From Verrucomicrobiota bacterium (lineage in GTDB: Bacteria; Verrucomicrobiota; Verrucomicrobiia; Verrucomicrobiales; DEV007), in NCBI GenBank assembly GCA_963205275.1, contig CAUJIH010000093.1:1-64000 (forward strand): a stretch of DNA of 64,000 nt. The letters run 5' to 3'. The notes under the pieces are model-generated. The model saw only the letters and a program-made list of their open reading frames with translations. It was not told the DNA's origin and ran no database searches. The translations under genes were made by a program, and so were the position numbers. Shown one piece after another: positions 102 to 13,331 of the stretch (the first letter of the stretch is position 1; each line of letters starts with the position of its first letter).

Positions 102-794
102 ATCAGAATTATCAATTGTCAAGAGGCGCTAATCAATTACCTTGACGGTTATCCTACATCGCATCAATGCAAGTTGGAATTGGATGTTCTGACCGTCCAT
201 TTCCCGAAATATTATGCGGGTAAAGATAAGAACTATTCGCAGGCTGAAGACACAGATTCTCCGATCCCGGCACCTTTTCCTGTAGTCGCCCGAGATCAGG
301 AATTCAAATTTGTTTTGATTGCTTTGGGATCGACTGAGAATCAAGCCGAATCCATGCGTCTTCTTGAAATCGCCGAAACATGTCTGAAAAATGCTTTGAA
401 AGAACATGGCGTAGGAGGAAAGACCCGTGCCGGATATGGGCGGTTTCGCGAGGCTGGAGGGCCACAGCAAATCCTGAGTGAAACCTTTGACGATCTATTC
501 GTCGCCCAGACAGCCTCGTCCACCAGTACCCAAAACGCAGATCCACATGAGAATCCCGCATCTCCGCAAGATCAAAGACTACTCGATTTTGTGGCAACGT
601 GGCAGACGGCATTGATTCCTGATGGCATCAATAGGTTTGCAGCGGAGCTTCGAAAACTCCCGAAAGAAATGCAAGTCGAAGCATTCTCCCAATGCGTGCC
701 GGAAGAACGACGCGTTCAGGACGATGCTCTCTGGTTTGCATTCAAGAACCGCCACCACGGCAAAGAACTTTTGCTTCATCTCAACATTCGGTAA
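102..794 (+). pseudogene. cmr6: Cmr6 RAMP protein lacking its N-terminal half
   Basis: Cmr6 is a RAMP-fold subunit of the type III-B effector that helps cap the crRNA-bound backbone. The reading frame opens right after the TAG at 99-101. Seen here are the middle Cmr6 motif (LDGYPT, then LELDVLTVHFPKYYAG) and the C-terminal glycine-rich RAMP loop GVGGKTRAGYGRF, followed by a polar extension of about 110 residues. The N-terminal RAMP half, which normally carries a PYIPGSSLKG-type motif, is in none of the three + frames upstream. The first usable start is TTG 174, which cuts into the conserved core. TAA 792-794 sits 2 bases before cmr1, as in an intact operon. The gene is probably broken by an internal deletion. 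A second, full-length cmr6 elsewhere or an assembly fault cannot be excluded. Confidence 0.65.
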
Positions 795-3134: not shown

Positions 3135-3201
3135 TACTTTCATCCCTTGCACCAAAACGACTTGCGGAAACACTTAGACATCGTTCACTTTAAAGTTGCT
3201 C

Positions 3202-4323
3202 ATGAGCTCCCTTCGTCAATTCCTGAACTTCCTTCGTCAACCTCTCGATTGGCCTCGGCTGAGAAAATCAGTAGATGGCTCTCTTTGCAAACTCGCTTTA
3301 TTTGCCCTTGGGGTCTTGACCCTCGGTCACACCTTTGCTGTCACCACATGGGAAATGCTCGAATATCGCTTCCCGTGGTATCTGTTCCTCGTTTCTTGTC
3401 TTGTCGTCTTCATCTTGTCCTCCGCTTGGCTGCGCGTGCATCGCTTTAGAAACAGGTGGGAGAACTTTGCCGCATTTATCCTCGCATTGACAGTAGGGCA
3501 CTGGATTGCTTTGGATTTCCACCATCTTCTCGCTCATGGGTGGCACCTGCCGAAATGGATTATCACCTTGATCACGCTTTTCGGTTTGGTTCTCTGCACC
3601 TTCTTTCTTCACCACGTTCGTCACTCTTGGCGCGGCGTGGTCACCTTTGAACGCATCTCAGCCACAGAACGGGTAAAAAGATCGCCCATACATAATCTCG
3701 TAATCTTTCTCTCTCCTCCTACAACCGTACCTAAAATCGCCAACAAAATTAGCTTCAAAAAAACGAAAACGGGAGATGAATGGTTGGAACTCAGTGGCAT
3801 TCTGGCCGATGACATTTCACGAATGAACGACCTCGGGTTTCACAACTGGCAACAACCTCTTCGCGCCATCTTGCCACACGTGGAGAATCTCCGATCGCTA
3901 TGGATCGTCGTGTCCCGATCAAGCAATGGGAATACCGAAATCGCCGAACCTAAGCTGCCGGGAGAGAGCCCTGACAACACCCTAGGTTCGGCCCCCTATG
4001 GTAAAATCGCCGAAACGATCTTCGGACGCTATCTGGATTTGGCGACGACCGAAATCTACATCTCCGACCCGGTGGACTTCGAGGACTTCAAAACCTTGGA
4101 ACACTACATCCGCAGCAAGATTCTAGATGTCCTCCCGCGCGGTTCGAGTCGGTCGACTGCCATTGACATCACCGGCGGCATGAAGGTCAGCAGTGCTTTG
4201 GGAAGCTTACTCACCGTCAATGACGAAGCCGTTTTCCAGTATGTCCAGACGATCGCTACGGATGATCCCAAGGCCCAGATCTACGATGTCCGCAACAACA
4301 TCGCACCAGGCACGCCCGGATGA
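3202..4323 (+). CDS. Four-helix membrane protein with cytosolic CARF-like domain
   Basis: This 373-residue protein has four predicted membrane helices at about residues 29-49, 58-77, 86-107 and 119-138. A soluble part of about 230 residues follows. It begins with a strand-like HNLVIFLSPP and carries DITGGMKVSSALG near 320-333, a motif typical of the ligand-binding loop of CARF domains, which sense cyclic oligoadenylates. Placement among Cmr genes, beside a ring nuclease and Csx14, supports a cOA-triggered membrane effector, comparable in concept to Cam1 or Csx23. I cannot assign it to either. ATG 3202 is preferred over TTG 3196. No nuclease or protease motif is visible, so the output is probably made by the membrane part (inference). 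Confidence 0.7.
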   Translation: MSSLRQFLNFLRQPLDWPRLRKSVDGSLCKLALFALGVLTLGHTFAVTTWEMLEYRFPWYLFLVSCLVVFILSSAWLRVHRFRNRWENFAAFILALTVGHWIALDFHHLLAHGWHLPKWIITLITLFGLVLCTFFLHHVRHSWRGVVTFERISATERVKRSPIHNLVIFLSPPTTVPKIANKISFKKTKTGDEWLELSGILADDISRMNDLGFHNWQQPLRAILPHVENLRSLWIVVSRSSNGNTEIAEPKLPGESPDNTLGSAPYGKIAETIFGRYLDLATTEIYISDPVDFEDFKTLEHYIRSKILDVLPRGSSRSTAIDITGGMKVSSALGSLLTVNDEAVFQYVQTIATDDPKAQIYDVRNNIAPGTPG

Positions 4324-4495
4324 TCCTGTTCCCCTGCAAGTTGTCATCAACTCGATCACGAGCTTTGCCGCTTGGACCACCCTGCGAACAGGCTCTGGAT
4401 GAGGTGGCGCGGCGCACTCATGGATAGTGTTGAGTCATTTCCGTCGCCTCTGTATCCCCGCAGAATTCTCTATGCCCCCTCCTGTTGCCCCTCTC

Positions 4496-5614
4496 ATGAA
4501 AACCACTCTCATTGCCGTCAGCGGGATGTCGCCCGCGATCCTCACCGAGACTGTCTGGGCGCTCGCCCATGAGACGCCGCTCGTGGTGCCGGACGAGGTC
4601 GTCGTGATCACGACCTCTCGAGGTGTGTGCGACATCGAGGAACTGCTGCTGACACCTCTCGATGTCTGGGGCGGCGAAACCGTGTGGTCTTGCCTGCGAC
4701 GGGACATATTCGCCCTCGCCAAGCTGCCCCAGAAGAGCGCTAGGCTGCAACTCGCCACACGCGTCATTGAGCTGCCCGACGCGGCGACCGGTGTGAAACG
4801 AAAGGCCTCCGACCTGCGCAGTCGCGAGGACAACGACAGCGCGGCCGACTTCATCGTCCAGGTTCTCGCGCCCTACGCCGATGCGGAGGACAATCGCGTC
4901 ATCGCCAGCATCGCCGGCGGGCGCAAGACCATGGGTGCGCTGCTCTACGCCGCCATGAGCCTACTGGGTAAGGAGGGCGACCGCGTTACTCATGTGCTAG
5001 TAAGCGAGCCCTTCGAGAACTGCCGCAGTTTCTTCTACCCCGGTCAACCCGTCCAAGCCCTAGAGGCGCGTCCCTATGGGCAGTCCCCTACTTCCATCCA
5101 AGCTGCGGACGCCGCCATCGAGCTGGCCGACATTCCCTTCGTCCCCCTACGCAACAAATTCGAGGAACTCAACGAACCCCGCCGCACCTTCGCGGGGCTG
5201 GTGGAAGCGTATTCAAAGGCCGAGCGTCAGGTGCTCAAACATGCTCCCCAAGTCTCGCTGGATATCGCGAAAGGTATTCTGAAGGTGGAGGGTCGATCTC
5301 TCAAGTTGACTGGACGCGACTTGCTCATCATCGCCTTCCTCCACGATCACGCTATCAAAGGCGGTCGGCATTTTCGCAACAAGGACGAGGCCGCCGACGA
5401 TCTCGCCTCTTTCATGGATTCCTGGAAAAAGCGGCATCCCTTTCATCAAGCGACCACGCGCCTGAGCGGAGGCATGGCGACGGTGGACGACATCCCCAAA
5501 GCCCTGAACTCTCTGCGAACGCAACTCAGAAATAAGGGGCTCTCCGGCGCCGTTCCTTGGCTCGCCCCCGAACGAAGCCGCATCGGCTTCGACATCGCGA
5601 ACGGATCCGGCTGA
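4496..5614 (+). CDS. csx14: Csx14/NE0113-family CARF protein
   Basis: This 372-residue protein begins MKTTLIAVSGMSPAILTET and continues VVPDEVVVITTSRG, the N-terminal signature of the CRISPR-associated NE0113 family (PF09623, Csx14). SIAGGRKTMGALLYAAM (about residues 138-154) is the second conserved CARF loop. The C-terminal 130 residues are mostly helical with a helix-turn-helix-like segment (GRDLLIIAFLHDHAI). Such proteins are thought to sense cyclic oligoadenylate; whether they regulate transcription or degrade the ligand is unsettled. ATG 4496 is chosen because family members start at this strand; ATG 4472 is the alternative. The 172 bases upstream hold no recognisable gene. Confidence 0.8.
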   Translation: MKTTLIAVSGMSPAILTETVWALAHETPLVVPDEVVVITTSRGVCDIEELLLTPLDVWGGETVWSCLRRDIFALAKLPQKSARLQLATRVIELPDAATGVKRKASDLRSREDNDSAADFIVQVLAPYADAEDNRVIASIAGGRKTMGALLYAAMSLLGKEGDRVTHVLVSEPFENCRSFFYPGQPVQALEARPYGQSPTSIQAADAAIELADIPFVPLRNKFEELNEPRRTFAGLVEAYSKAERQVLKHAPQVSLDIAKGILKVEGRSLKLTGRDLLIIAFLHDHAIKGGRHFRNKDEAADDLASFMDSWKKRHPFHQATTRLSGGMATVDDIPKALNSLRTQLRNKGLSGAVPWLAPERSRIGFDIANGSG

Positions 5615-5695
5615 GGAGACCGTTCTCTCCGCCTTCCGAAATCCCCGGATTTCCCCGAACGCGCAAGGACCACCTTTCGCATCGAAGCTTGGAGC

Positions 5696-7297
5696 ATGAA
5701 CCACCAACCCTCCTCCTCACACAATCGTCGCTCCGACGACAACCCTGTCATCCAACTAGTTCGCGCTGATCTCTCCCGGCGCGGCGGTTTGGCACTGAAC
5801 CGTTTCTTCTTTTTTGCCACGATCTTCCTCCTCTCGCTGCTCTTCCTCGCGGGCTTCGTCCGCATCGGAGCACTGCTCTGGGTGAGGAGCGAGATCTCCA
5901 GTTCCACTGGCGAACTCGCCCGTGTAAGCGGCTTCGATGCACGCACCACTGGATGGCTCACCGGCCCGGTCTCCCTTATTTCCTCGGCGCTGGTGGCCGG
6001 GACCGTGCTGCGCATCCTGTTCGCGTTCCTCCTGCCGTGGACGAGGGGGCCCCACTTCTTTCGCTCGGTTTTCCTCGTGCTGGCGGCGACCGGATTCTTC
6101 GCGGTGGCGCCCGGAATCATCACCGACTTTCGCGGGCTGGATGAAGGTGGCCTGCCCGCAAAGATGAGCGAGATCGATCCTGCGGAGGTGGACTGGTTCA
6201 CTCCGGGCAACGTACCGCTCCTTTTCTACGCCGACCATCTCGACGGACAGCGCCGCTTCTGGAACCGGCCCGGACACACTCCTAAGGACGGGGCCGTGGC
6301 CTATCCAGTGACTGAGGAAGTGCGTCGCTCTTGGGAGGAGGCAGAACAACGTAAATCCGCCGAGCAGCGCCGTCTCGAGCGGGAAGCCTCTCTGCGGCAG
6401 CAGGAGCAGAGGAACGAAAAGCTGGCGCGGGAGCATAAGGAAGCGCTCGCCAAGCTGGAGACAACCCGTGAAGAACTCGTGCGATCCGCCGGAAAATTTA
6501 CTAATGCTTCCGGCCATCCAGTAGGAATGGAGCAGCGAGGTTCCTCCGACGCTAAGCCTGTCGTGTCTTTCGGGAAGGCAGCGCCCGGTGGTTCCGGCAA
6601 AAGGACGGTGCCTCCCGGATTCCTCTCTCCCCAACCCAGTGCCCCGTCACCACTGCCGCCCGCCGATTTTGATTTCGAGGTGTTTCCGGGGCGCTTCCTC
6701 CAACTCGGGTTGTCGCGGCGATCCGCAGAAATCTGGGCCGACGGCACCGTGGAAATTTCACGTCCCGGATCCGACGATGTGATTGTGGTTGGATCTGGGA
6801 TGCGCCGTAGCTTCAACCAGGCCGATACCCTGCTAGTGAGCCCGGTAGGCACGTCTTCCGTCCGCCTGCGCTTGCGCTGGCTGGAAGGGGGGCGGGAGAG
6901 CCCTTCTGTGGCCTATCTGCCTGTCGCTCCCGTCAAGGAAGCCACCACGCCGTCTGTGTCGCCTTCCGATCTTTGGCCTGCGGCACTGGTATCGGTTCCC
7001 AGCATAGCACCAGTGCCAGCATCGCCACGACCTCCGCAATGCTTCCCTTTGTATCCGGGCAAAGTTTTCCATATTTCGGTTCACAGCGATACCGTGGAAT
7101 GCTGGAGCGACGGCCCTGTGATCGTTGGTGCGGGCAGCTCTGGGGGCGGGGTCCGGGAATTGGAGGCGTATCAGCGCATCCGGATTTCAGGTTCCCCCAA
7201 AATTCATGCCGCTCCGGCGGCCCGGGAAACGCGGCATTTTTTTGTCCAACCGATTGCACCGAGTCCGGCGCGAATGCAGCAGATGGTCGGCTACTGA
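5696..7297 (+). CDS. Unknown membrane protein with coiled coil and duplicated beta domain
   Basis: I do not recognise this 533-residue protein. It has two strong membrane segments (about residues 36-60 and 87-115) and a third weaker one (about 124-145). A charged Glu/Arg/Gln coiled coil follows at about 210-265, then a Pro/Ser linker. Two related beta-rich modules come last: one starts FPGRFLQLGL and reads AEIWADG, the other starts YPGKVFHISV and reads VECWSDG, so the second looks like an internal duplication. It starts 81 bases after csx14 and ends 10 bases before the reverse transcriptase, so it is probably co-transcribed with the CRISPR genes. Long minus-strand frames over it lack these features and are treated as spurious. 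Confidence 0.72.
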   Translation: MNHQPSSSHNRRSDDNPVIQLVRADLSRRGGLALNRFFFFATIFLLSLLFLAGFVRIGALLWVRSEISSSTGELARVSGFDARTTGWLTGPVSLISSALVAGTVLRILFAFLLPWTRGPHFFRSVFLVLAATGFFAVAPGIITDFRGLDEGGLPAKMSEIDPAEVDWFTPGNVPLLFYADHLDGQRRFWNRPGHTPKDGAVAYPVTEEVRRSWEEAEQRKSAEQRRLEREASLRQQEQRNEKLAREHKEALAKLETTREELVRSAGKFTNASGHPVGMEQRGSSDAKPVVSFGKAAPGGSGKRTVPPGFLSPQPSAPSPLPPADFDFEVFPGRFLQLGLSRRSAEIWADGTVEISRPGSDDVIVVGSGMRRSFNQADTLLVSPVGTSSVRLRLRWLEGGRESPSVAYLPVAPVKEATTPSVSPSDLWPAALVSVPSIAPVPASPRPPQCFPLYPGKVFHISVHSDTVECWSDGPVIVGAGSSGGGVRELEAYQRIRISGSPKIHAAPAARETRHFFVQPIAPSPARMQQMVGY

Positions 7298-7307
7298 AAA
7301 TCTCAAG

Positions 7308-8834
7308 ATGAAGGATGATCGAAGACACCGCTACGACGGGGCTTGCCACGACTCCAGAGTGGTGGACATGGAAGCCGTCCTGTCGCCCGAATCCGGTCGC
7401 ATCGCGTTCGGGAAGGTGCGTTCCAACCGGGGAGCACCGAGATGCGACAGCGTCACTGTCGAGGAACTGGAAGCTGTGTTTCCTGCGCAATGGGCGGAAC
7501 TGGGACGCAGCATCAAGGCAGGAACCTATCGGCCCCATCCGCTCCGGCGAGTCGAAATCCCAAAAGCGGATGGAGGCGTGAGGAAGCTCGGCATCCCGTC
7601 GGTGATGGACCGGGTCGTGCAGCAGGCTCTGGCTCAGGCGCTCGCTACGATCTTCGAGCCTAGGTTCTCGCCGTCGAGTTTCGCTTACCGTCCGGGACGG
7701 AGCGCCATCGATGCGGTGAAAAGCATCCAAGCCCGTCTCCGCCACGACGACGGGTTTTCAGCCTTGCATCTCGACATCCGCTCCTTTTTCGATTCGGTGG
7801 ACCACGGTCTGGTGCGGGACCATTTGTCCGGGCAACCCGTCACAGCCGAAGTACTCGATCTGGTAGATGTGTCGATCCGCTGCGGCGTGCTTGAAAAGGG
7901 CTTGGTTCGCTCGTCGGCGGCGGGCATCCCGCAAGGCAGTCCGCTCTCGCCGCTGCTCGCCAACGTGGTGCTAGATTCCTTCGACAGATGGTTGACGCGG
8001 AGACATGTCGCCTTCGCCCGCTACGCCGACGACCTCTTGTTGCTCGTGCCCAGTCTCGCGGAGGGGCGGCGGCTGATCGAAGAGGCGGCGGATTTTCTCT
8101 CCCGCGTCCTCCGGCTCGAACTCAACAAGGAAAAAACTCGGCTCGGCCATTGGTCGCGGGCGTCTTTTCTCGGATTCGGATTCCGAGCGGATGCAGCAGG
8201 AGGCGTCCGCCGCTGTGTCAGCCCGGAATCCCTCGCCGCCTGTCGGGCCGAGGTCGAAAATCTCGCTGCGGCAAACGGGGGAGGGCCGGAAAGGGCCATT
8301 GTGGAAACGAGGAGGTTTCTCAGCGGCTGGACCGCCTACTACCGCCATACCGAATTCGCCGAAGACATCCGCGAACCATACGCGGTGGCGCGCGACCGCG
8401 TGCGCATGTGCCGCTGGGCCGCATGGGAGAGCGCGGAAAACCGACAGCGGGAATTGATCTGTCTCGGCATCGATCCAGAGTCGGCGGCGGCAGCGGCCCG
8501 CGAAATCCCGCCGCCCCTGCCGCTGCTGAGATGCGCCATGCCCGACGAATCATTCCGGGGCCACGGGCTCGCCGATCCGCTGGCACCGGCCTGGCCCGGC
8601 GAACCCGGGAGACAGGCCGCCGCCCGCATGGAATACGGAGGCTCCATCCCCCGCAGCACGTCACACGCCCGGATCCGCTGGGGCGACTCCTTGCTGTGGT
8701 TCCTGCGCCGTCTCTTCCGCTCCCGGCTGCTCCGGGTGCGCTTGGAAACCTGCCGATCCCGGCGGGGATTTCTGCCCCGCCCCTCCGCCATTGGCATCGA
8801 AATCGGTGGCTTCTGTTTCCGTTTCCGTTTGTGA
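7308..8834 (+). CDS. CRISPR-associated reverse transcriptase (group II intron-like)
   Basis: This 508-residue RT is predicted to support spacer acquisition from RNA with Cas1 and Cas2. RT motifs appear in order: PKADGGVRKLGIPSV, SFAYRPGRSA, ALHLDIRSFFDSVDH, AGIPQGSPLSPLLAN, the catalytic FARYADDLLLL, and LNKEKTRLGHW. A maturase-like thumb segment (FLSGWTAYYRH) follows near residue 340. It is not fused to Cas1 but lies 21 bases upstream of it. ATG 7308 follows the previous stop by 10 bases. The Arg-rich, low-complexity C-terminal tail (after about 420) is unusual. No group II intron RNA or DGR template repeat is seen nearby, which argues for a dedicated CRISPR RT. Confidence 0.88.
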   Translation: MKDDRRHRYDGACHDSRVVDMEAVLSPESGRIAFGKVRSNRGAPRCDSVTVEELEAVFPAQWAELGRSIKAGTYRPHPLRRVEIPKADGGVRKLGIPSVMDRVVQQALAQALATIFEPRFSPSSFAYRPGRSAIDAVKSIQARLRHDDGFSALHLDIRSFFDSVDHGLVRDHLSGQPVTAEVLDLVDVSIRCGVLEKGLVRSSAAGIPQGSPLSPLLANVVLDSFDRWLTRRHVAFARYADDLLLLVPSLAEGRRLIEEAADFLSRVLRLELNKEKTRLGHWSRASFLGFGFRADAAGGVRRCVSPESLAACRAEVENLAAANGGGPERAIVETRRFLSGWTAYYRHTEFAEDIREPYAVARDRVRMCRWAAWESAENRQRELICLGIDPESAAAAAREIPPPLPLLRCAMPDESFRGHGLADPLAPAWPGEPGRQAAARMEYGGSIPRSTSHARIRWGDSLLWFLRRLFRSRLLRVRLETCRSRRGFLPRPSAIGIEIGGFCFRFRL

Positions 8835-8855
8835 ATTACCCCTCCATCGCTTGTC

Positions 8856-9854
8856 ATGCCCACTCTCGCTATCCAAAGTTCCGACTCCAAAGTGTCGCTC
8901 GAGTCCAAGTGCCTCATTGTCTCCTCCCGTGCAGATGGGGAGGAGAAATGCTCTTCCGTGCCGCTGATTGAGATTGAGCGTGTCCTGCTGTGCAGCCGCG
9001 CCCACATCACCACGCCCGCGCTCGCGGAGCTGATGCGGCGCGGCATCCCCGTGTCCGTAGTCACATCGCGCGGGCGTTTCCTCGGTTCCTTCGAAGCTCC
9101 CGGTCCCGCCCGAGGTCTCATGCGCCTAGCCCAGTATCAGCGGCAGGGCGATCCTTCTTTCTCTTCCGTGATCGCCGGAAAGCTGGTGACCGCGAAGATA
9201 TCCAACCAGAGAAGGCTGTTGCAGCGCGTCGATTCGAACCACGGAATCCTCAGCGATTTGGTCGGCAAACGGCTCGCCTCCTTCGCGGAACGGGCCGAGA
9301 ACTCTGCATCGGTCGATCTCATCCGAGGATTGGAAGGTGCAGCAGCAGCGGAATTCTACGAGGCCTGGGCGTGTTTCCTGCCTGCGGCTTTCCCTTTCGA
9401 GAAGCGATCCTTGCGCCCGCCTCTCAATCCTGTCAACGCATGTCTCTCCTACATCGCGTCGCTGCTCTACGGCGAACTCCTCAGTGCCTGCCATGCGAGA
9501 GGACTCGATCCGGCGCTCGGGCATCTCCACCCGTCCACCGACCAGCGCTGGTCCCTGCCGCTCGACCTGATGGAACCCTTCCGCCCTTGCGTCATCTACG
9601 CGCTGACGTTGCGCCTCTTCTCCCACCGCATCCTCAAACAAGGCGATTTCGAGGCGAAAAGTGGTGGCACCTATTTGAACGACGGTGGGCGCCGCACTCT
9701 CCTGAATCACTACGAAAAAACCATGGAGCGAGAGCATTTCTCTGAGTTTGCGCAATGCCGCACAAGTCTTCGGCGGCAGATTCAGGAAGCACCCCTGCAC
9801 TACAAGACGAGTTTGGCCGATCCAGCTCGCTTCGCCCCCTTTCGCATGAATTGA
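8856..9854 (+). CDS. cas1: Cas1 integrase
   Basis: Cas1 is the metal-dependent integrase that inserts prespacers at the leader end of the array, as a Cas1-Cas2 complex. The 332-residue protein has the N-terminal beta domain (residues 1-80) and a helical catalytic domain. The conserved Glu sits in RGLEGAAAAEFYEAW, and the His and acidic residues sit in GHLHPSTDQRWSLPLDLMEP, so the active site looks intact. Length is normal. It follows the RT gene by 21 bases and precedes cas2 by 22. Confidence 0.95.
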   Translation: MPTLAIQSSDSKVSLESKCLIVSSRADGEEKCSSVPLIEIERVLLCSRAHITTPALAELMRRGIPVSVVTSRGRFLGSFEAPGPARGLMRLAQYQRQGDPSFSSVIAGKLVTAKISNQRRLLQRVDSNHGILSDLVGKRLASFAERAENSASVDLIRGLEGAAAAEFYEAWACFLPAAFPFEKRSLRPPLNPVNACLSYIASLLYGELLSACHARGLDPALGHLHPSTDQRWSLPLDLMEPFRPCVIYALTLRLFSHRILKQGDFEAKSGGTYLNDGGRRTLLNHYEKTMEREHFSEFAQCRTSLRRQIQEAPLHYKTSLADPARFAPFRMN

Positions 9855-9876
9855 ATGCCCCCATCTTCTCGCCGTC

Positions 9877-10251
9877 ATGGGAAGCGTCACTACCATCTCC
9901 CGGGCCGAAACCGATTGGTGGGACGACTTGCTTCCGCCCCGCCCCCATCCCAAACCGCCTGCCTCCGAAGAAATGCTCCGCCTCATCGCCTACGACATCG
10001 CCGACGAACGCCGTCTCCGCCGCATCGCCAAGGTATGCGAGGGCTTCGGAGTGCGCGTCCAGAAAAGTCTCTTCGAATGCTGGTTGGACGAAGACTGCTT
10101 CGAGGAGATGTGGTCTCTACTTTTGGGAGAAATGAAGGAAGCGGAAGATTTCCTCGTCGCCTACCCAATCGATGTTCGTAGCGCCCGCAAACGCCGCACC
10201 GCCGGGCGAGGCATGATCATCACCGAGAAGCGTTCTCGGTATGTTTTTTGA
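9877..10251 (+). CDS. cas2: Cas2
   Basis: Cas2 is the small structural dimer that bridges two Cas1 dimers during integration. The core starts MLRLIAYDIADERRLRRIA at residue 33 and includes VQKSLFECWLDE, the usual ferredoxin-like Cas2 fold. From ATG 9877 the protein has a 32-residue Pro-rich N-terminal extension and 124 residues in total. Starting at ATG 9973 gives a canonical 92-residue Cas2 and is equally plausible. The start is 22 bases after cas1, and the array leader follows directly. Confidence 0.93.
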   Translation: MGSVTTISRAETDWWDDLLPPRPHPKPPASEEMLRLIAYDIADERRLRRIAKVCEGFGVRVQKSLFECWLDEDCFEEMWSLLLGEMKEAEDFLVAYPIDVRSARKRRTAGRGMIITEKRSRYVF

Positions 10252-10470
10252 CGCGCAGGGAGTAGGTCGAGGTCAGAGCTTTGCCGAAGCGGAAACCGAG
10301 GGAGGCCTGACTTCGATGATTGCGATCATGTTATCTGTTTATAGAGAATAATATAGGAAGATTTTTGTAGACGAGTAAACAGGAGTGGTATCCCGATTTC
10401 GGCGTGCCCGAACGACCTCTGACTTTTCTAGGAAGTTGACAACTGAATTAAAAGGAAATACGAATTAGGT
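10252..10470 (+). promoter_or_regulatory. CRISPR leader
   Basis: These 219 non-coding bases lie between cas2 and the first repeat. The last 140 or so are AT-rich compared with the surrounding coding DNA (for example ATAGAGAATAATATAGG near 10340). Position next to cas2 and before the first repeat, together with the repeat's ATTGAAGAC 3' end, places the leader here and transcription on the + strand. No specific promoter hexamers are claimed. Confidence 0.7.
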
Positions 10471-11623
10471 GTCCGCTAAGGACACACAGCCGAAAGGCAT
10501 TGAAGACCAGTATTCCGCGATCTTTTCTGGTGCCGATATATCCGTCCGCTAAGGACACACAGCCGAAAGGCATTGAAGACATTTCGACGAAGCCCCAATG
10601 CAGCAATCCCGCCGTCTTCGTCCGCTAAGGACACACAGCCGAAAGGCATTGAAGACCACGAGCTAATTCGTACTGAATACGACTCATATTTAACTGTCCG
10701 CTAAGGACACACAGCCGAAAGGCATTGAAGACCATCCCTGTTGGGACATCCTCATACCCGTACTCTGTGTCCGCTAAGGACACACAGCCGAAAGGCATTG
10801 AAGACTCCGGCCACTCGATCGCCACCCGGCACTCACTGATCCGCGTCCGCTAAGGACACACAGCCGAAAGGCATTGAAGACCAAAATTACAATGGTGACA
10901 GTCTTCAATCCTTTGAAGAAGTCCGCTAAGGACACACAGCCGAAAGGCATTGAAGACAAGGTTGGTTCTGGCCAAAGAGAACACTAATATGGCGTCCGCT
11001 AAGGACACACAGCCGAAAGGCATTGAAGACTATGGCGTTTTTCTTGGGTAGAGCCTCCAGACGCATAGTCCGCTAAGGACACACAGCCGAAAGGCATTGA
11101 AGACTGATAATCCCAGAGCTTCAAAGAAATCCCCTTGCTTCAAGTCCGCTAAGGACACACAGCCGAAAGGCATTGAAGACAAGGTTGGTTCTGGCCAAAG
11201 AGACCACTAATATGGCGTCCGCTAAGGACACACAGCCGAAAGGCATTGAAGACGGCGTGAGCGATGGCCACAGCCACCGGCAACGACGCCGGTCCGCTAA
11301 GGACACACAGCCGAAAGGCATTGAAGACGGGACCTCACACCCTCAGGCATAGGACACTTCATTTGTGTCCGCTAAGGACACACAGCCGAAAGGCATTGAA
11401 GACACCGTGAGAAATTGCCACAGCCACAGGTAGGCTGGCGTCCGCTAAGGACACACAGCCGAAAGGCATTGAAGACCGGCGGTCTTCCCATCATTGGTGG
11501 TCTTCCCATCGGCGTCCGCTAAGGACACACAGCCGAAAGGCATTGAAGACTGGTGACAGATTTTCGAGTCTAACTCGATTTCCCTCGTCCGCTAAGGACA
11601 CACAGCCGAAAGGCATTGAAGAC
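10471..11623 (+). CRISPR. CRISPR array, 16 repeats and 15 spacers
   Basis: Sixteen copies of a 37-base repeat begin at 10471, 10544, 10620, 10696, 10769, 10845, 10921, 10994, 11068, 11144, 11217, 11292, 11367, 11440, 11514 and 11587. I found no mismatch in any copy, including the last. The repeat begins GTCCGCTAAGGAC, which can fold as GTCC/GGAC, and ends GGCATTGAAGAC, an ATTGAA-type 3' handle typical of type III arrays. Spacers are 36-39 bases. Spacers 7 (10958-10993) and 10 (11181-11216) differ by one base. Spacers 11 and 13 are related. Spacer 14 contains an internal repeat. The uniform repeats suggest a young or homogenised array. Apparent reading frames through the array are artefacts. 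Confidence 0.98.
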
Positions 11624-11699
11624 CGGCGTTGCCAATTAACAATTAACAGTTAATAGTGAACAATGAGTTCCTGAAATGGCGATATGATTGGCTCGCTAC

Positions 11700-11820
11700 T
11701 GGGTTGGCGGGGACATGCTCAAAGGCTTCACTTGAGCACCCTTTCAGGGCTTTGTGTTTCCGAATCTTCAAATTCACAGGGTGTTGCCCTAGGCATATAG
11801 TGCGCCTCTTTGAGGCTGGG
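11700..11820. repeat. Multi-hairpin palindromic intergenic element
   Basis: Three inverted repeats occur close together: TGCTCAA (11716-11722) with TTGAGCA (11732-11738), AGGG (11778-11781) with CCCT (11787-11790), and GCCTC (11804-11808) with GAGGC (11812-11816). The first hairpin has a diverged relative at 21512-21534. The layout resembles REP-like elements thought to be spread by RAYT/IS200-type transposases, but no such transposase gene is in the window. The 70 bases before it (11624-11700) contain short AATTAAC repeats at the trailer end of the array and no gene. Confidence 0.55.
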
Positions 11821-11841
11821 AATACACGTCATCGGGAGTGA

Positions 11842-12093
11842 AGGAAGAGTAGCGTGGACAATCCTGTCCGCGAAAGCCGTTCATGGGAGCGCCAACGAGG
11901 ACGTAGGCGGCCCCAGGCTGGGGTAGTGGAGGAAGAGTAGCGTGGACAATCCTGTCCGCGAAAACCATTCCTGGGAGCGCCAACGAGGACGTAGGCGGAC
12001 CCAGGCTGGGGTAGTGGAGGAAGAGTAGCGTGGACAATCCTGTCCGCGAAAGCCATTCCTGGGAGCGCCAACGAGGACGTAGGCGGCCCCAGG
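11842..12093. repeat. 88-bp tandem repeat, 2.9 copies
   Basis: Copies start at 11842, 11930 and 12018, each beginning AGGAAGAGTAGCGTGGACA; the third is cut short at about 12093. Copies differ at only a few positions. Each contains a near-perfect hairpin (GGACA, ATCC, TGTCC) and a second stem around CCCCAGGCTGGGG. A related single copy lies at 21415-21470, so the element is dispersed as well as tandem. No coding potential is credible. The rest of this intergenic stretch (12094-12152) holds nothing recognisable. Confidence 0.85.
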
Positions 12094-12152
12094 GGATTCT
12101 AAAGGACAGGCGATTTTAAATTTCTTCATCCTTCCGCCTTCATCCTTTTTTC

Positions 12153-13331
12153 TCACCCTCCTACCAGCGCCTTCGTCGCATTCCCGAGCATCGCCTGAAT
12201 ATGCGGAGTGTAGAGATCGGGTTCTAAGAGGAAGGAGTCGTGGCCTTTTTCTGAATGCACGGTGAAGAAGAGATGGGGGACATCCGCTCGCTTGAGGGCG
12301 TCCACTAGCGCTTGCTGCTCATCTGGATAGAAACAGTAATCTTCCTCGATGCTGAAGATCAGATATTGGTGCTCGGCCTGATGGGATCGAGCGAAAAGGG
12401 CGTCGCTATCGGTTGCGCCTGACTCCCGCACTGGATCGAAGCGACTCCACGCTTCGCAGATGCGCAAATAAGTGTTGGCGTCGAAGCGATTCGTAAATTT
12501 TTTCCCCTGATGGAGCATGTAGCTTTCGACGTGATCGTGAACCTGATACCAAGAAAAGCGCTCGTCCGGGTGAATTAGATCGCGACTGGCGCGGTTTTCG
12601 ATCGCATTGAGATGGACGAAGGTCTTGTGGCTGATCATGCGGGCGAGGGCGAGCCCGGTCTCTGGCACCCCGGATTCATAGTAATCGCCTCCTCGAAAGC
12701 GGGGGTCGTTCTCTATGGCGAGAATCTGTTCGAGCAAAATGATGCGGTTGAGCACTGTGGTTTTCACCCCGGTCGCAATGGGGATCACCTTGCTGACGCG
12801 GTGTGGATGGGTGGTCGCGAAGGTGATGGCACCCAATCCTCCTGTGGAAGGACCGACCACAGCGAGCAGGCGATCAATCCGGAGCGAATCCAGCAGCATG
12901 ACCTGACTGCGGACGATGTCGGCAAAAGTGACATGGGGAAAGCGCGAGCCGTAGCGCTGGCCAGTGGCGGGATCGATGCTGGAAGGCCCGGTGGAACCGT
13001 AACAGCCGCCCAGATAGTTCGCGCAGATGATGAAGTAGCGGTCGGTGTCGAGGGCCTTGTCCGATCCGATAAAGGGCTCCCACCATCCGGTGACGCACTC
13101 CTGAGTCCAGAATTCCACGCCGGGGACCCCTGGATTGATCCCGGCTGCATGTTGACTGCCCGAAAATGCGTGAAACAGCAGAATGGCGTTCGAGCGATCT
13201 TCATTAAGTTCGCCAAAAGTCTCATACGCGATCTGGGCGTGCTCGAGCACTTCTCCGCTCCGAAATACGAAGGGAGCATCCGGCGTTGCGATTTCCAGAA
13301 ACTGTGAGTTGATGATACCAAGGTCACTCAT
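12153..13331 (-). CDS. metX: Homoserine O-acetyltransferase (MetX-type)
   Basis: This 392-residue alpha/beta hydrolase transfers an acyl group to homoserine in methionine synthesis. Seen are the oxyanion-side FHAFSGSQHA, the family NYLGGCYGSTGP, the nucleophile elbow GPSTGGLG (Ser near 162), the acid region SIEEDYCFYPDEQ and the catalytic His in SEKGHDSFL. The elbow differs a little from the common GGSMGGMQ. Acetyl versus succinyl specificity cannot be read with certainty from sequence. It is a single gene, divergent from polA across 218 bases, with no other methionine gene beside it. I looked for a SAM riboswitch upstream and did not recognise one. Confidence 0.9.
   Translation of the reverse strand: MSDLGIINSQFLEIATPDAPFVFRSGEVLEHAQIAYETFGELNEDRSNAILLFHAFSGSQHAAGINPGVPGVEFWTQECVTGWWEPFIGSDKALDTDRYFIICANYLGGCYGSTGPSSIDPATGQRYGSRFPHVTFADIVRSQVMLLDSLRIDRLLAVVGPSTGGLGAITFATTHPHRVSKVIPIATGVKTTVLNRIILLEQILAIENDPRFRGGDYYESGVPETGLALARMISHKTFVHLNAIENRASRDLIHPDERFSWYQVHDHVESYMLHQGKKFTNRFDANTYLRICEAWSRFDPVRESGATDSDALFARSHQAEHQYLIFSIEEDYCFYPDEQQALVDALKRADVPHLFFTVHSEKGHDSFLLEPDLYTPHIQAMLGNATKALVGG

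What the first reader, a model, noticed from the sequence alone, without database searches (positions are those of the whole stretch)
10958..11216. Near-identical spacers 7 and 10
Both 36-base spacers match except at position 24 (A at 10981, C at 11204). Their neighbours differ, so block duplication is unlikely. Independent acquisition from two variants of one target, or one acquisition with an RT copying error, would both fit.
Basis: seen in the sequence. Interest (0 to 1): 0.5.

Follow-up and report, generated by a model that had tools for sequence, protein, structure and literature searches.

The report
Same-site CRISPR spacers, one base apart
Two immune-memory entries in this bacterium's CRISPR array are identical except for one letter, most likely because the cell sampled the same spot of two near-identical invaders on separate occasions, which looks ordinary because similar pairs are seen in arrays with no reverse transcriptase found nearby.

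Summary
In detail: spacers 7 (10958-10993) and 10 (11181-11216) match at 35 of 36 positions (A/C at position 24), far beyond a shuffle control. The array (10471-11623, 16 perfect 37-nt repeats, 15 spacers) follows RT, cas1 and cas2 genes beside type III-B cmr/CARF genes. Best explanation: two separate acquisitions from one site in two near-identical invaders. Spacers 11 and 13, not mentioned in the finding, are a second same-site pair: same 5' start, 24 of 36 bases, but 10 of 12 encoded residues, with 7 of 12 differences at third codon positions. Isolated same-length pairs with 1-3 mismatches also occur in 5 of 78 arrays where no RT was detected, against 1 of 6 with one. A same-genus III-B locus with a near-identical repeat and no RT in the locus holds a same-boundary pair differing at 5 positions. 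An RT copying error is therefore not needed, though not excluded; duplication plus mutation also remains possible. No target was found in six exact-pattern viral scans for 7/10, one for 11/13, or 33 genus genomes. Interest is low.

The parts
10471..11623 (+). CRISPR array, 16 identical 37-nt repeats, 15 spacers of 36-39 nt
   Evidence: no other copy of this repeat (up to 3 mismatches) in the host genome
10958..10993 (+). spacer 7 (A at position 24)
11181..11216 (+). spacer 10 (C at position 24), 35 of 36 identical to spacer 7
11031..11067 (+). spacer 8, whose first 6 bases equal the last 6 of spacers 7 and 10
   Evidence: 0.083 expected by chance
11254..11291 (+). spacer 11; minus strand reads ASLPVAVAIAHA
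11404..11439 (+). spacer 13; minus strand reads ASLPVAVAISHG, same 5' start as spacer 11
10252..10470 (+). probable leader between cas2 and the first repeat
   Evidence: position only; orientation inferred from the repeat's 3' end (ATTGAAGAC) and the upstream cas genes
7308..8834 (+). reverse transcriptase of group II intron type (RVT_1, GIIM, YADD); start codon inferred, the listed ORF begins at 7125
   Evidence: no group II intron RNA match in 5000-13000
8856..9854 (+). cas1
   Evidence: PF01867, E = 1e-75
9877..10251 (+). cas2
   Evidence: PF09827, E = 5.2e-17
174..794 (+). cmr6 C-terminal part, cut by the contig start
   Evidence: PADLOC Cmr6 models; window base 1 is base 1 of contig C93
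692..1738 (+). cmr1 (RAMP); the true start is uncertain
3196..4323 (+). CARF/transmembrane ancillary protein
4427..5614 (+). CARF protein, Csx1/NE0113 type

Best explanation
Spacers 7 and 10 are two separate acquisitions by the RT-Cas1-Cas2 module from the same site of two near-identical invader genomes or transcripts. Spacer 10 was taken first, then spacers 9 and 8 were added, and later spacer 7 was taken from a variant that differs by one base. Shown: the two spacers, their identical ends, the array order, the RT-cas1-cas2-array gene order, and a second same-site pair (11/13) that reads as diverged homologous coding sequence. Inferred: that the array grows from the cas2 side, that both variants existed in targets, and that a site preference or selection for protective spacers makes the same site recur.
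For: Spacers 11/13 in the same array start at the same base and differ as homologous coding sequences do: 24 of 36 bases, 10 of 12 residues, differences at codon positions 1/2/3 = 3/2/7, including TCG/AGC for one serine. They are not a recent copy of each other, so same-site sampling of variants happens here. The same-genus genome G032 has a III-B locus with a repeat two bases different, cas1-cas2 and no RT in the locus (its only match to the window RT is a weak one on another contig, C81, E 4.8e-11, 25% identity). In its array two 40-nt spacers share both ends and differ at 5 positions (30/39's numbering, 31/40), and others overlap by 22-24 identical bases. In 78 arrays with no RT detected there are 6 isolated same-length pairs with 1-3 mismatches (5 arrays) and 7 end-shifted near-exact pairs in 6 arrays (L075, L081, L099 twice, L102, L113, L142), which simple copying inside an array would not give. 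All 16 repeats here are perfect: if mutation were even, a single hit would fall in the 72 bases of the two spacers rather than the 592 repeat bases only 11% of the time, which argues against copying followed by mutation.
Against: No protospacer was found for either variant, so the two target variants are not demonstrated. The A/C change alters the residue in all four open frames, whereas natural variants of a coding target are mostly silent, as in 11/13. Both ends are identical to the base, which copying explains more simply; 11/13 share only the start (38 and 36 nt). Exact duplications do occur in the census: 25 exact pairs in L097 and 3 in L140, mostly as blocks, and single exact pairs in L068, L086, L101, L103. 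SpacerPlacer (PMC11472070, passages) classes 86% of duplicate candidates as duplications, and about 1% each as reacquisitions and independent insertions. PMC12915315 (passages) says recurring spacers were previously attributed to duplication.
Confidence: 0.64

Rival explanations
1. Duplication inside the array: one repeat-spacer unit was copied by recombination between repeats (a 3-unit tandem duplication followed by loss of two units, or gene conversion), and one copy later mutated.
For: Both ends identical. Duplication is the explanation given for most repeated spacers in two papers (PMC11472070 and PMC12915315, passages). Block duplications exist in the census (L097, L140) and isolated exact copies exist in L068, L086, L101, L103.
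Against: Neighbours are not copied, so at least two rearrangement steps plus a point mutation are needed. All 16 repeats (592 nt) are perfect. Outside the block arrays L097 and L140, isolated 1-3-mismatch pairs (6) are about as common as isolated exact pairs (4) among arrays with no RT detected, although copying should leave mostly exact pairs; the numbers are small.
Confidence: 0.21
2. RT copying error: the same transcript site was captured twice and the reverse transcriptase wrote one wrong base on one occasion.
For: An apparently intact RT (YADD motif in the translation, RVT_1 E = 5.5e-32) lies directly upstream of cas1. The substitution is a transversion that changes the residue in every open frame, as an undirected error might. 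RT-Cas1 fusions acquire spacers from RNA and DNA (abstract of PMC11014452 as listed).
Against: Near-identical pairs occur where no RT was detected (5 of 78 arrays against 1 of 6 with RT, p = 0.37, low power), and a same-genus III-B array without an RT in its locus holds diverged same-site pairs. It still needs two captures of one site plus an error, whereas natural variation needs no error. No error rate for a CRISPR RT was found in the passages seen.
Confidence: 0.1
3. Assembly artefact: two strain variants of the array were merged, or the unit was duplicated in assembly.
For: The genome is a 109-contig draft, and the 110-nt repeat-spacer-repeat unit is nearly repeated. No reads were available.
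Against: The two units differ by a base and have different spacers on both sides, in a 153,913-base contig. The same kind of pair occurs in a single-contig genome (L142, G308).
Confidence: 0.05

Closest known systems
[quoted passage not shown]
   Same: Near-identical spacers within CRISPR arrays of one genome
   Different: There predominantly type I-E, and one type I-G; an RT is not mentioned in the passages seen. Here type III-B with RT
Duplicate-spacer candidates of SpacerPlacer (PMC11472070, passages read)
   Same: A spacer present more than once, treated as duplication, rearrangement, reacquisition or independent acquisition
   Different: That analysis works on spacer labels across groups of arrays; most cases were read as duplication
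RT-associated type III-B CRISPR-Cas (Marinomonas mediterranea RT-Cas1; PMC5513706, PMC11014452, PMC5576922, passages read)
   Same: RT beside or fused to Cas1, type III-B effector, spacer sources mostly unknown
   Different: RT and Cas1 are separate genes here; capture from RNA is untested here
Type III-B locus of same-genus genome G032 (L052/L053)
   Same: Repeat 35 of 37 identical, cas1-cas2-array order, Cmr and CARF genes, same-site spacer variants
   Different: No RT in the locus; longer array (64 to 67 repeats) with far more overlap among spacers

Membership tests
RT-associated type III-B CRISPR-Cas | Cas1 and Cas2 beside the array | tested here: met
RT-associated type III-B CRISPR-Cas | Group II intron-type RT adjacent or fused to Cas1, without intron RNA | tested here: met
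   RT ends at 8834, cas1 starts at 8856; RVT_1 and GIIM; no intron RNA match in 5000-13000
RT-associated type III-B CRISPR-Cas | Cas10 with Cmr subunits | tested here: inconclusive
   Cmr6 (cut by the contig start) and Cmr1 in the window; Cas10 lies on another contig, C83; linkage not shown
RT-associated type III-B CRISPR-Cas | Spacers acquired from RNA | not testable with these tools
   no targets found; needs an acquisition assay
Intra-array block duplication | Neighbouring spacers copied in the same order | tested here: not met
   neighbours 6, 8 and 9, 11 are unrelated
Independent re-acquisition from target variants | Both variants present in natural targets | tested here: inconclusive
   no target in viral contigs, phages, plasmids or 33 genus genomes
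Independent re-acquisition from target variants | Other same-site variant pairs in the same or a sister array | tested here: met
   spacers 11/13; G032 array

The most novel reading that the evidence does not exclude
The RT of this module writes occasional wrong bases while copying recurrent RNA sites, so that the array stores slightly varied guides against one target, a mild built-in diversification of immune memory.
Probability: 0.05. Interest if true: 0.65.

Novelty: already known. Interest (0 to 1): 0.2.

Why it matters
It shows that a near-identical spacer pair beside a reverse transcriptase is no sign by itself of RT error, because the same pattern is found in arrays where no RT was detected. 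The 11/13 pair and the sister array suggest that this III-B lineage repeatedly samples one site of diverging targets, which would make its arrays useful for tracing related invaders.

Tried and rejected
Target search: the 36-nt pattern with M at position 24 and a 21-nt core gave 0 exact matches in viral contigs. Four codon-degenerate patterns, one for each open frame of spacers 7/10, gave 0 each. The codon-degenerate pattern for 11/13 gave 0 in viral contigs and, in 286 genomes of the class, only the two array copies themselves. BLAST of spacer 7 in phages and plasmids and of spacers 8 and 11 in phages gave only weak matches (best E 0.5). The E 0.5 match of spacer 8 to a Klebsiella phage terminase gene was looked at and set aside: 22 of 24 bases, near the gene's end, not extended at protein level.

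Prophage or self target: spacers 7/10 occur nowhere else in 33 genus genomes, the host included, with up to 3 mismatches. Group II intron rather than CRISPR RT: no intron RNA match in 5000-13000.

RT census: adjacent RT-cas1 pairs seen in the phylum sample were few (own, G250:C960, G363:C598), read by eye from the lists, which were cut (RT at E <= 1e-40, and more matches not listed). G363:C598 (L106) gave no array. Six arrays with RT (102 spacers) against 78 without is weak power; of the four RT loci, the RT is next to cas1 in the window and L105, between two arrays in L023, and about 8 kb from cas1 in L108. 'Without RT' means no tblastn match of the window RT at 1e-6 in the stretch held, so an RT beyond a stretch would be missed. 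The 80 cas1 stretches were taken mostly from the top of the score-ranked list, not at random.

Rows dropped before counts: one search needed at least 4 repeats and dropped spacers outside 20-75 nt, so the 2-repeat contig-end array of G021 is not in it. It left out L001-L011, L047-L052, L055 and L056 (window copies, or repeats of stretches already held) and L021 (a false run seen). It found 86 arrays with 2122 spacers; two were then dropped as miscalled (L075:1196-1443, L137:1990-8316), leaving 84 arrays and 2032 spacers. In L138 the repeat was cut short by the script; its pair keeps 2 mismatches within about 35 nt. G032 spacer numbers differ by one or two between and because of a stretch with Ns and a degenerate repeat.

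Literature: seven searches in the held open-access library only; no claim is made that anything is absent from print.

Full report
What is there. The window holds a CRISPR array at 10471-11623 with 16 identical 37-nt repeats and 15 spacers of 36-39 nt. Upstream on the same strand lie an RT gene (about 7308-8834, start inferred), cas1 (8856-9854) and cas2 (9877-10251), and before them cmr6 (cut by the contig start), cmr1 and CARF genes. Cas10 is found once in the host genome, on contig C83. I read this as a type III-B locus with a separate RT gene just before cas1; that Cas10 belongs to it is inferred. No group II intron RNA match was found in 5000-13000. The host is an unnamed draft genome of 4.08 Mb in 109 contigs; its name was not determined.

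The observation. Spacers 7 and 10 are 36 nt and differ only at position 24, A against C. The alignment score of 34 compares with at most 14 in 100 shuffled sets; 1 of 292,994 pairs of spacers from different loci reached 16 and none 17.

A second pair. Spacers 11 and 13 score 17. Placed at the same 5' start they share 24 of 36 bases; their lengths are 38 and 36. On the minus strand one frame gives ASLPVAVAIAHA and ASLPVAVAISHG, 10 of 12 residues, against 5 or 6 identities in each of the other five frames; differences by codon position are 3, 2 and 7, and one serine changes from TCG to AGC. That is the mark of homologous coding sequences under purifying selection. These two spacers therefore most likely come from the same site of two diverged relatives. 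If the array is read from the cas2 side, as the repeat's 3' end suggests, both crRNAs are antisense to that reading frame, as type III targeting needs (inference from recalled biology).

A sister array without RT in its locus. Of 33 genus genomes, three carry the repeat within 3 mismatches: the host, G032 and G021. G032 has Cas10, Cmr3, 4, 5, 6, 1, two CARF proteins, Cas1 and Cas2, with no RT between the CARF gene and cas1. A whole-genome search of G032 with the window RT gave one weak match on another contig (C81, E 4.8e-11, 25% identity), so the genome is not proven free of RTs. Its array contains two 40-nt spacers with the same ends and 5 differences, overlaps of 24, 23 and 22 identical bases, and a 27-of-29 match. 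The core of that site was found only in its own array among three genomes tested. So repeated sampling of one site in variant targets occurs in a close relative of this repeat lineage whose locus has no RT.

A census. Cas1 was found in 186 of 387 genomes of the phylum sample. I fetched 80 stretches, each holding a listed cas1 hit, and scanned them together with loci already held. After two miscalled arrays were dropped, 84 arrays with 2032 spacers remained. A tblastn with the window RT found one in 4 of 72 array loci (window, L108, L105, L023). Same-length pairs with 1-3 mismatches occur in 5 of 78 arrays with no RT detected (6 pairs, 1930 spacers) and in 1 of 6 with RT (1 pair, 102 spacers); Fisher p = 0.37 by arrays and 0.30 by spacers. 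None of these pairs is part of a block. Three of the six have exactly one mismatch, one of them in a single-contig genome (L142). In addition there are seven end-shifted near-exact pairs in six arrays with no RT detected, four isolated exact pairs, and two arrays with block duplications (L097 with 25 exact pairs, L140 with 3). In the RT loci, L108 has eight related pairs, mostly diverged and shifted, and L023 and L105 have none. Power to see an RT effect is low.

Mechanism. End-shifted copies and diverged same-site pairs are not easily made by copying inside an array, so re-acquisition of a site is very likely real in these genomes. For 7/10 itself the ends are identical, so copying followed by mutation stays possible. 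Against it are the uncopied neighbours and the 16 perfect repeats: with even mutation a single hit falls in the two spacers rather than the repeats 11% of the time (repeats may be kept alike by other means). Against variant acquisition is that the change alters the residue in every open frame, which would be unusual for silent drift in a gene though not for a noncoding target. An RT error is compatible but needs an extra event.

Targets. No protospacer was found: six viral-contig scans for 7/10 and one for 11/13, phage and plasmid BLAST for spacer 7 and phage BLAST for spacers 8 and 11, and pattern searches in 33 genus genomes (7/10) and 286 class genomes (11/13).

Known or new. PMC12915315 (passages) already describes repeated spacers, some identical and some differing by a few nucleotides. 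PMC11472070 (passages) counts about 3% of spacers as duplicate candidates, mostly read as duplications. PMC7515739 (abstract and passages) shows that protective type III spacers can concentrate on a small phage region through selection, and PMC5576922 (passages) says type III tolerates target mutations better. PMC5513706 (passages) merges spacers within 1-2 mismatches before counting, so such pairs would not show there. The finding is ordinary.

Noticed in passing
window 11254-11291 and 11404-11439: Spacers 11 and 13 encode the same peptide stretch with mostly silent differences: two diverged homologous targets hit at the same start.
   Followed up: yes
window 11031-11036 with 10988-10993 and 11211-11216: Spacer 8 starts with the 6 bases that end spacers 7 and 10, so it may come from the adjoining stretch of the same target (0.083 overlaps expected by chance).
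   Followed up: partly
L053 (G032), 4687-9742: Many overlapping and diverged spacers that seem, by eye on the minus strand, to tile a coding region, pointing to an acquisition or selection hotspot in a type III-B locus without RT.
   Followed up: partly
L075, L079, L117, L138, L142 arrays: In near-identical pairs, 6 of 11 substitutions lie in the first 8 spacer positions as written (binomial p about 0.02; post hoc, array orientation not checked for all), which might mean re-acquisition from seed-escape mutants in type I systems.
   Followed up: partly
L108 (G222:C176), 6558-10730: Array in a locus with an RT about 8 kb from cas1 (1003-aa open frame) holding 8 related spacer pairs, mostly diverged and shifted.
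   Followed up: no
window 11834-12097: Three tandem 88-nt repeats (91-93% alike) just after the array, of unknown nature.
   Followed up: no
window 11477-11513: Spacer 14 contains GGTCTTCCCATC twice, so it is internally repetitive.
   Followed up: no
G000:C56:8056-9162 (L038) and G000:C21:30764-31651 (L107): A second RT with no array found in the 20 kb fetched around it, and a second cas1 inside a 609-aa open frame with its own 19-repeat array.
   Followed up: partly
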